From the NCBI GenBank assembly GCA_029262515.1, contig JAJCZH010000002.1, positions 81,023 to 145,022 of the forward strand: a stretch of 64,000 nt of DNA, written 5' to 3'. Below, one piece after another: positions 13,955-64,000 of the stretch. The notes under the pieces are model-generated. The model had not been told where the DNA came from, ran no database searches, and saw only the letters and a list, made by a program, of their open reading frames with translations. Source of the DNA: Deltaproteobacteria bacterium (GTDB lineage: Bacteria; Desulfobacterota; GWC2-55-46; JADFVP01). A program made the translations under genes and the position numbers. Numbering within the stretch: the first letter of the stretch is position 1; every line of letters starts with the position of its first letter.

Positions 13955-14039
13955 TGGTGCCGAAGGGGGGATTCGAACCCCCACGAGTCTCCCCACCACC
14001 CCCTCAAGATGGCGTGTCTACCAGTTCCACCACTTCGGC
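13955..14039 (-). tRNA. tRNA-Leu (anticodon GAG)
   Basis: Class II tRNA with encoded CCA. Acceptor arms GCCGAAG and CTTCGGC pair fully; the D region contains TGGTAGACAC; the anticodon stem CCATC pairs with GGTGG around the loop TTGAGGG, giving GAG, which reads CUC/CUU leucine codons. A long variable arm (GGGGAGACTC region) and the T arm GGGGGTTCGAATCCCCC follow. It lies 73 bases after secG on the same strand, a familiar secG-tRNA-Leu linkage. Confidence 0.97.
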
Positions 14040-40771: not shown

Positions 40772-41122
40772 TGGTGGAGGCGGTGGGAATCGAACCCACG
40801 TCCGGAAACGCCTACATTCAGGCATCTACATACTTAGTCTATGGAAATTTCTCACCCTCTTGCATCCCACAGACAAACTACAAGAGCGCCAGTCCGGTTA
40901 GATTTCGCCATTAGGGTACTTCGGACAGAGCCCCTTAGGCTATCCTGCTAGTAGTCGTCCCGTAAAACCCGCAGGAGAAGCCCCACAGGACGCTAGCCGT
41001 GATTAAGCGGCTAGTGCGTAGTTATAGTCGTCTGCGACTATGTGTTTCTACCTGGTTAACGAGTAGTAGGCCTCGGTATGCTTCCTGAGTTTCGGTCCGT
41101 CCCGTCGAAGCCGGTCGCCCCC
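40772..41122 (-). ncRNA. ssrA: tmRNA
   Basis: One-piece transfer-messenger RNA of 351 bases that rescues stalled ribosomes and tags the peptide. The 5' end reads GGGGGCGACCGGCTTCGACG and the 3' tRNA-like part ends GTTCGATTCCCACCGCCTCC with encoded ACCA. The tag frame GCA GAC GAC TAT AAC TAC GCA CTA GCC GCT TAA gives ADDYNYALAA, close to the E. coli tag. smpB lies directly upstream on the same strand. Confidence 0.97.
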
Positions 41123-63367: not shown

Positions 63368-63562
63368 TTAAAATATTTCGTGATATGAGTACCGCCACGG
63401 CTCTTTTTTTTAATATAAAGAGCTGAAGAGAGGTTATTTTTATTTATGATAGGTGTGGATTTTACTAGCAAATCAATTACTTATCGAAAAACAAGAAGAA
63501 TGTTGATATTCCTCCTTCCGATTAATCTAATTTTAATATACACACATGTATACTGTTAACCA

Positions 63563-63680
63563 TAGAGCACGACCTCCGAGTCTCACGACGGGTCACAGAG
63601 GTTTTCAGGCGATGAGTGCCGCAGTACTACCGACGCAGGTACGGGTAGTATAGCAGGCATTTTTTTTTAAAAAAAATGCC
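63563..63680 (+). promoter_or_regulatory. Structured leader, candidate riboswitch with terminator
   Basis: Upstream of the cytochrome gene, ACCTC...GAGGT (63573-63602) encloses CGAGTCTCACGACGGGTCAC. An intrinsic terminator follows: TGCC..TACTACC / GGGTAGTA..GGCA (63617-63659) then nine T. The GGCA plus T9 can instead pair with A8TGCC just downstream, hiding the U tract. The layout of aptamer-like part plus switchable terminator suggests ligand control; the ligand is unknown. The remainder of the 488-base gap 63247-63734 holds the msrB terminator and AT-rich DNA. Confidence 0.6.
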
Positions 63681-63734
63681 AAGATAAAGATGCAACACAT
63701 AACTTTTTTACTTACTCTCGAAAGGAGTACACAC

Positions 63735-64000
63735 ATGAAAAGATTTTTAGCCATCGCTCTCGCAGCTTCCCTCGGACTCGTAATGGCCGGTTCAGCTTCT
63801 GCAGGTACCTATCAGAAGGCCCCTAATGCATACGCAGTAGGCGACGCCGCAAACGGTATCGGTACTTCGAGGCATAACCTTGGTGGATTCGGTGAGCACG
63901 TTGTAACCCCGGACACTACCGAGATCTGTATCTTCTGTCACACGCCTCACCACACCAATACCTCCATGGCTCCGATATGGAACAGGAACATCGTTTCCAC
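63735..64000 (+). CDS. Multihaem c-type cytochrome (3' partial)
   Basis: Not in the track because it runs off the window. ATG with AAAGGAG upstream; signal peptide MKRFLAIALAASLGLVMAGS ending SASA, then a mature segment with RHNLGGFG and a haem site CIFCHTPHHT followed by NTSMAPIWNRN. The CxxCHTPHHT-xn-PLWN pattern is typical of multihaem cytochromes with several such repeats (doubled CxxCH type). Further genes of its operon lie outside. Confidence 0.85.
   Translation, partial: MKRFLAIALAASLGLVMAGSASAGTYQKAPNAYAVGDAANGIGTSRHNLGGFGEHVVTPDTTEICIFCHTPHHTNTSMAPIWNRNIVS

What the first reader, a model, noticed from the sequence alone, without database searches (positions are those of the whole stretch)
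63541..63735. Candidate riboswitch controlling a multihaem cytochrome operon
A compact leader holds an aptamer-like stem (ACCTC/GAGGT around CCGAG and GACGGGTCAC), a strong intrinsic terminator, and a competing GGCAT9/A8TGCC palindrome that would remove the U tract. That is the layout of a transcriptional switch. From memory, the CTCCGAG and GACGGGTCACAGAGG strings recall the Moco/Tuco RNA motif, which would fit a molybdoenzyme operon, but I cannot verify this. It does not show the GEMM core GGCAAACC/GACGCAAAGC.
Basis: partly seen in the sequence, partly recalled or inferred. Interest (0 to 1): 0.75.

Follow-up and report, generated by a model that had tools for sequence, protein, structure and literature searches.

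The report
New RNA switch before cytochrome genes
The leader is one of about 90 copies of an RNA control element absent from Rfam, which sits before electron-transfer and signalling genes in a group of uncultured Deltaproteobacteria; two small look-alike hairpins appear to decide whether transcription stops early or runs into the gene, and what they sense is still open.

Summary
The leader at 63,549-63,734 is one of seven copies in this genome and about 90 in 34 of 48 genomes of its order. It matches no Rfam family, neither Moco nor GEMM. Across 84 distinct copies the structure is strongly supported: 264 compensatory cells against 70 in shuffles, and P1 arms fit their own partners far better than swapped ones (z = -11.7). 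Anatomy: a consensus promoter (12/12 in 38 copies) fires just upstream. P1 and P2 are hairpins that carry the same loop element, A-H-G-R. The 3' strand of P2 is also the 5' base of an intrinsic terminator. In about a third of copies a downstream strand can capture the terminator's 3' arm. P2 and terminator are therefore mutually exclusive: a transcription-antitermination switch. Targets: 58 of 80 readable are multihaem cytochromes, 17 are GGDEF proteins, a few are secreted proteins. The effector is unresolved. (i) An ANTAR-type RNA-binding protein: same architecture, and most stand-alone ANTAR genes lie beside copies; but the loops fail the canonical A1/G4 hexaloop test. (ii) Cyclic di-GMP or another small molecule: GGDEF and PilZ genes in the regulon. 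I judge these 0.45 and 0.38. No binding was tested.

The parts
63549..63554 (+). -10 hexamer TATACT of the likely promoter; no clear -35 in this copy
   Evidence: its paralogue on contig C17 has TTGACA-16-TATACT, and 38 of 84 copies have a 12/12 sigma-70 consensus, usually ending 4-8 nt before the element
63572..63576 (+). P1, 5' arm of the outer helix (ACCTC)
   Evidence: covarying helix, arm-swap test z = -11.7
63582..63592 (+). P1 loop element YUCAHGRNGGG (here CTCACGACGGG), containing A-H-G-R at 63585-63588
   Evidence: conserved in 84 distinct copies
63598..63602 (+). P1, 3' arm of the outer helix (GAGGT)
63608..63620 (+). P2 hairpin GGCG-AUGAG-UGCC; loop repeats the A-H-G-R element (63612-63615)
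   Evidence: stem paired in 99.6% of cells; loop profile matches that of P1
63617..63620 (+). strand a: 3' arm of P2 and also 5' base of the terminator (UGCC)
   Evidence: the same columns pair in both structures
63625..63650 (+). upper terminator stem TACTACC / GGTAGTA with its loop
   Evidence: seven covarying pairs, 93% of cells paired
63656..63668 (+). strand b: 3' base of the terminator (GGCA) and U tract (T9)
   Evidence: terminator hairpin -19.6 kcal/mol
63669..63680 (+). strand c: A8UGCC, complementary to b; captures the U tract in the read-through RNA
   Evidence: comparable b-complementary strands in about a third of copies
63720..63727 (+). Shine-Dalgarno region GAAAGGAG
   Evidence: identical in the three own-genome leaders
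63735..64000 (+). 5' part of a secreted multihaem c-type cytochrome gene (FCHTPHHTN); cut by the contig end
   Evidence: full-length relatives match Paired_CXXCH_1 / Cytochrome_C7

Best explanation
The leader is a cis-acting transcription-antitermination switch of a family that is not in Rfam. Transcription starts just 5' of P1 (inferred from promoter position). By default strand a (UGCC) pairs with strand b (GGCA) at the base of an intrinsic terminator and transcription stops at the U tract. When an effector holds the two A-H-G-R hairpins P1 and P2, strand a is kept in P2, the terminator loses its base, and RNA polymerase reads into the gene; in this and about a third of the copies a later strand c (A8UGCC) then pairs with b and locks the ON state. 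Shown: conservation, covariation of P1 and of both terminator stems, the shared strand a, and energies. Inferred: ON polarity and the switching itself. For the effector I commit, narrowly, to an ANTAR-type dimeric RNA-binding protein reading the two look-alike loops in turn (0.45), with a directly bound small molecule, most likely c-di-GMP, close behind (0.38). The confidence given here is for the antitermination switch itself, not for the effector.
For: About 90 copies in 34/48 genomes of the order, seven in the own genome. Covariation: 90.6% of cells paired, 264 double-change cells against 69.8 in shuffles and at most 96 when slid; terminator stems 153 against 33. P1 arm-swap test on raw sequence, independent of the pair counts: -5.98 against -3.02 kcal/mol, z = -11.7. 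The same columns form P2 and the terminator base. Promoter at 12/12 consensus in 38 of 84 copies, median 7 nt before the element. In the window the terminator conformer is the minimum-energy fold up to the U tract, and the P2 plus b-c conformer is the minimum once strand c is present. For ANTAR: both loops have A at position 2, G at position 4 and purine at position 5; ANTAR proteins in 48/48 genomes; most of the roughly 14 stand-alone ANTAR genes lie within about 2.5 kb of a copy, some of them weak matches.
Against: No binding, termination or expression data. P2's stem hardly varies, so covariation says little about P2 itself. Alignment A4 was fitted to a model, which flatters the pair counts. 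The ANTAR reading fails the canonical hexaloop test (dual A1/G4 hexaloops in 3 of 84 leaders, 2.2 expected from shuffles). The stand-alone ANTARs lack the EutV loop-contact residues (alignment; residue numbers from PMC8934654). The REC-ANTAR that is common to the order is equally conserved in families without the element.
Confidence: 0.82

Rival explanations
1. A small-molecule riboswitch of a new class whose ligand is most likely c-di-GMP: the two A-H-G-R loops bind the ligand, P2 is stabilised, and the terminator is prevented (ON switch).
For: 17 of 80 readable downstream genes encode GGDEF proteins, nearly all PocR-GAF-GGDEF, with the Asp of GHxxGD and an RxxD site before GGEEF (sequence). 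In the own genome the only PocR protein is under the element and a PilZ (c-di-GMP receptor) gene follows one of the cytochromes. Cytochromes and secreted proteins are typical cyclic-dinucleotide riboswitch targets in Geobacter (PMC6456294, PMC8835794). The P1 loop is more conserved than a protein contact seems to need.
Against: No ligand test. The same genomes already have true c-di-GMP-I riboswitches on other genes. No pairing or covariation between the loops and an unconserved linker. GGDEF downstream does not prove that the leader senses c-di-GMP.
Confidence: 0.38
2. The leader is read by another kind of RNA-binding protein (for example a BglG/LicT-type or CsrA-type regulator) rather than an ANTAR protein.
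For: P2 overlaps the terminator as in RAT-type antiterminators; the commonest P2 loop, GAUGGAU, contains GGA as CsrA sites do.
Against: Nearly half of the P2 loops have AUGA instead of AUGG or other forms, which removes GGA. Searches for such regulators were not run.
Confidence: 0.1
3. A constitutive attenuator: terminator and hairpins set a fixed level of read-through without a signal.
For: Intrinsic terminator right after the promoter.
Against: Loop nucleotides are conserved in 84 distinct copies while stems and linker vary, which a fixed attenuator would not need.
Confidence: 0.05
4. A Moco/Tuco riboswitch (Rfam RF01055).
Against: No Rfam match, at permissive thresholds too; no molybdoenzyme among downstream genes read.
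Confidence: 0.01

Closest known systems
ANTAR dual-hexaloop antiterminators (EutV/eut, NasR/nasF, AmiR/amiE; PMC3369931, PMC8934654)
   Same: Two small hairpins with look-alike loops in a leader, the second overlapping the 5' strand of an intrinsic terminator; short linker; ANTAR genes in the genome and, in several loci, downstream of the controlled gene (as in the ami operon, from memory)
   Different: The loops are not A1-N-N-G4-N-N hexaloops: A and G are two apart (A-H-G-R), loop size varies, and an extra U-tract-capturing strand follows the terminator in many copies
c-di-GMP-I / cGAMP (GEMM) riboswitches (RF01051)
   Same: Transcriptional control in front of cytochrome, secreted-protein and GGDEF genes; tandem copies occur
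   Different: No GEMM core, no Rfam match; true GEMM-I copies in the same genomes precede other genes
Guanidine-II (mini-ykkC) riboswitch (PMC5486947)
   Same: Two small hairpins of similar sequence; loop consensus ACGR (from memory) resembles A-H-G-R
   Different: The second loop position is mostly U or A here, so C-G loop-loop pairing is not kept; no Rfam match; different targets and a different, terminator-based platform

Membership tests
ANTAR dual-hexaloop RNA | two short stem-loops with a linker of 2-25 nt | tested here: met
   P1 and P2 covary or are paired in nearly all copies; P1 loop end to P2 start 8-19 nt
ANTAR dual-hexaloop RNA | P2 overlaps the 5' strand of an intrinsic terminator | tested here: met
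   same columns in both structures
ANTAR dual-hexaloop RNA | hexanucleotide loops with A at 1 and G at 4 in both hairpins | tested here: not met
   3 of 84 leaders, 2.2 expected in shuffles; the conserved element is A-H-G-R
ANTAR dual-hexaloop RNA | ANTAR protein encoded in the genome | tested here: met
   48 of 48 genomes of the order; also true of genomes without the element
ANTAR dual-hexaloop RNA | binding by an ANTAR protein | not testable with these tools
   needs EMSA or in vitro transcription
c-di-GMP-I riboswitch (RF01051) | match to the family's covariance model / GEMM core | tested here: not met
   no hit; the same model finds genuine copies elsewhere in these genomes
c-di-GMP riboswitch of any class | binds c-di-GMP | not testable with these tools
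   only gene-context evidence
Moco RNA motif (RF01055) | match to the family's covariance model | tested here: not met
   absent even at E<=10
Guanidine-II riboswitch | match to the family's covariance model; ACGR loops able to pair C-G with each other | tested here: not met
   no Rfam match; middle loop position U/A/C without inter-loop covariation

The most novel reading that the evidence does not exclude
A new riboswitch class in uncultured, presumably metal- or mineral-respiring Deltaproteobacteria: two miniature hairpins with the same A-H-G-R loop element bind c-di-GMP (or a related nucleotide) directly and switch on extracellular cytochromes together with the diguanylate cyclase that makes the signal.
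Probability: 0.35. Interest if true: 0.9.

Novelty: new variant of a known kind. Interest (0 to 1): 0.74.

Why it matters
About 90 copies of a covarying RNA element, absent from Rfam release 15, precede multihaem cytochromes and GGDEF enzymes across an order of uncultured Deltaproteobacteria. It links electron transfer, c-di-GMP signalling and premature termination by one RNA rule. Either answer about the effector is useful: a new c-di-GMP riboswitch class, or ANTAR recognition of a non-canonical loop, which would widen the search pattern for ANTAR targets. The question can be settled with a 60-nt RNA and standard binding and in vitro transcription assays.

Tried and rejected
Moco and every other Rfam family. 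GEMM: searched across the order; real but different loci with other targets. CsrA at the P2 loop: the GGA core is missing in nearly half the copies. Kissing between the two loops: no covariation of the kind expected. Canonical ANTAR hexaloops: not above chance. Distribution beyond the class: 395 genomes of the phylum gave one weak hit outside the class (at most 10 candidates scored per genome, so sensitivity is limited). A DNA-pattern scan of genome contigs returned 48 stretches; only 11 scored clearly with the model (35 bits or more), all from MAGs labelled Deltaproteobacteria, Proteobacteria or bacterium; the others, such as Bacillus and Streptomyces, look like chance. Literature: nothing found for further c-di-GMP riboswitch classes (III, IV), a haem riboswitch, or PocR-GGDEF with cytochromes; only open-licence papers were searched. 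A first crude test for strand c counted only A-tract forms (15 of 84); inspection and a second test showed other complementary forms (17 of 84 at p<=0.05, where A-tract forms score poorly), so 'about a third' is an estimate from both.

Full report
Observation. The sequence is as described: a -10 box, a P1 hairpin, a terminator with nine T, the GGCAT9/A8TGCC palindrome, and a Shine-Dalgarno region before a secreted cytochrome start at 63735. The contig ends at 64,000, and the two other own-genome contigs that carry the same leader and gene start (C17, C11) also end inside that gene, as expected for a repeated gene that assembly could not cross. The 'operon' therefore cannot be read here.

Family. 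A DNA search found copies in relatives. A model of 17 leaders found seven strong copies in the own genome and about 90 in 34 of 48 genomes of the order, with a few in another order of the class. The search of 395 genomes of the phylum gave almost nothing outside the class. Named records that match are MAGs labelled 'Deltaproteobacteria', 'Proteobacteria' or 'bacterium', including groundwater and 'Dive96' bins. No Rfam family matches.

Structure. On 84 distinct copies 90.6% of cells are paired, with 264 double-change cells against 69.8 in shuffles; slid registers fall to 37-45%. The terminator's lower and upper stems give 92.5% and 153 against 33. Because alignment A4 was fitted to the model, I also tested P1 on raw sequence: arms folded with their own partner average -5.98 kcal/mol, shuffled partners -3.02, z = -11.7 over 61 diverse copies. 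P2 (GGY...GCC) hardly varies, so it rests on conservation and pairing (99.6%), not on covariation.

Two look-alike loops. P1 and P2 share a position profile: A (79/84 and 83/84), then U/C/A but almost never G, then G (84/84 and 81/83), then a purine (82/84 and 76/83). The loops show no pairing-type covariation with each other and the linker is not conserved, but the spacing is limited: 8-19 nt from P1 loop end to P2.

Switch logic. The strand UGCC at 63617-63620 is the 3' side of P2 and the 5' base of the terminator; both cannot form. Folding the window leader up to the end of the U tract gives the terminator conformer (-32.8 kcal/mol); adding the rest gives P1 + P2 + upper stem + b-c hairpin as the minimum (-44.8 for the whole leader). 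About a third of copies have some b-complementary strand after the U tract, in sequence-different forms such as GACGGC/GCCGTC, CAAGGC/GCCTTG and GGCAT8/A8TGCC; the copies before GGDEF genes mostly lack it. A consensus promoter sits at a fixed distance in most copies, 12/12 in 38 of 84, so transcription is probably strong and the decision is made at the terminator.

Targets. Of 80 readable first genes, 58 are multihaem cytochromes (mostly 4-5 CxxCH, FCHTPHHTN), 17 carry GGDEF (nearly all PocR-GAF-GGDEF), 5 are other or partial. Others include secreted proteins and, for a weaker match, a spore-coat-U pilus-like protein. A PilZ gene follows one own-genome cytochrome. The own genome's single PocR protein is under the element.

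Effector. Two readings remain. ANTAR: this is the architecture of ANTAR antiterminators (PMC3369931, PMC8934654), ANTAR proteins are in all 48 genomes, and most of about 14 stand-alone ANTAR genes lie close to a copy, in G012, G027, G032 and G024 beside clear copies and in G035, G022 and G030 beside weak ones. Against it: the loops are not A1/G4 hexaloops, and the stand-alone ANTARs differ from EutV at the loop-contact residues (compared with PMC8934654). A REC-ANTAR with the divergent surface SQKENKKM is conserved in nearly all genomes of the order, but in families without the element too. Small molecule: the GGDEF and PilZ context and cytochrome targets point to c-di-GMP, as in Geobacter cGAMP/c-di-GMP riboswitch biology (PMC6456294, PMC8835794); the GGDEF domains keep the Asp that c-di-GMP makers have rather than the Hypr serine (sequence inspection; rule from memory). 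Against it: no binding data, and genuine GEMM-I copies already serve other genes in these genomes.

Verdict. A real, conserved antitermination element, not a Moco RNA, not GEMM, and not a canonical ANTAR RNA; it works like the last. I file it as a new variant of a known kind, with a substantial chance that it is a new riboswitch class.

Noticed in passing
L014 1400-1455, L016 1741-1790, L017 1430-1475 and many others: The promoters before the element share TTAAT boxes upstream of the -35 and inside the spacer (ATTAATTTTTCCC-TTGACA-nnnTTTAATT-nn-TATAAT), as if a DNA-binding regulator also acts there.
   Followed up: partly
L074 2900-3076; L220 1775-1965; L215 405-618; own genome contig C11 (L003 near 380-445): Tandem copies of the element in one leader; in C11 the first copy looks decayed.
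   Followed up: partly
L083 1627-2358, L104 1814-2125, L230, L231, L236: Stand-alone ANTAR proteins of about 100-130 aa, two types, next to element-plus-cytochrome loci; they differ from EutV at loop-contact residues.
   Followed up: partly
G000 contigs C21:14883-14982 and C3:41913-42008 (L137, L138): Two genuine c-di-GMP-I riboswitches in the same genome, over the Rfam cut-off; the gene found downstream of each is not a cytochrome.
   Followed up: partly
window 63735-64000; L002 and L003 start: Three contigs break inside the same cytochrome gene, so at least three near-identical gene starts exist in this genome.
   Followed up: yes
L082, L101, L121, L122 downstream genes: In several genomes the cytochrome is followed by what looks by eye like a secreted peptidyl-prolyl isomerase and a monohaem cytochrome lipoprotein, a possible electron-transfer cluster; no family search was run on them.
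   Followed up: no
window 40772-41122 and 13955-14039: tmRNA (tag ADDYNYALAA) and tRNA-Leu(GAG), both ordinary.
   Followed up: no
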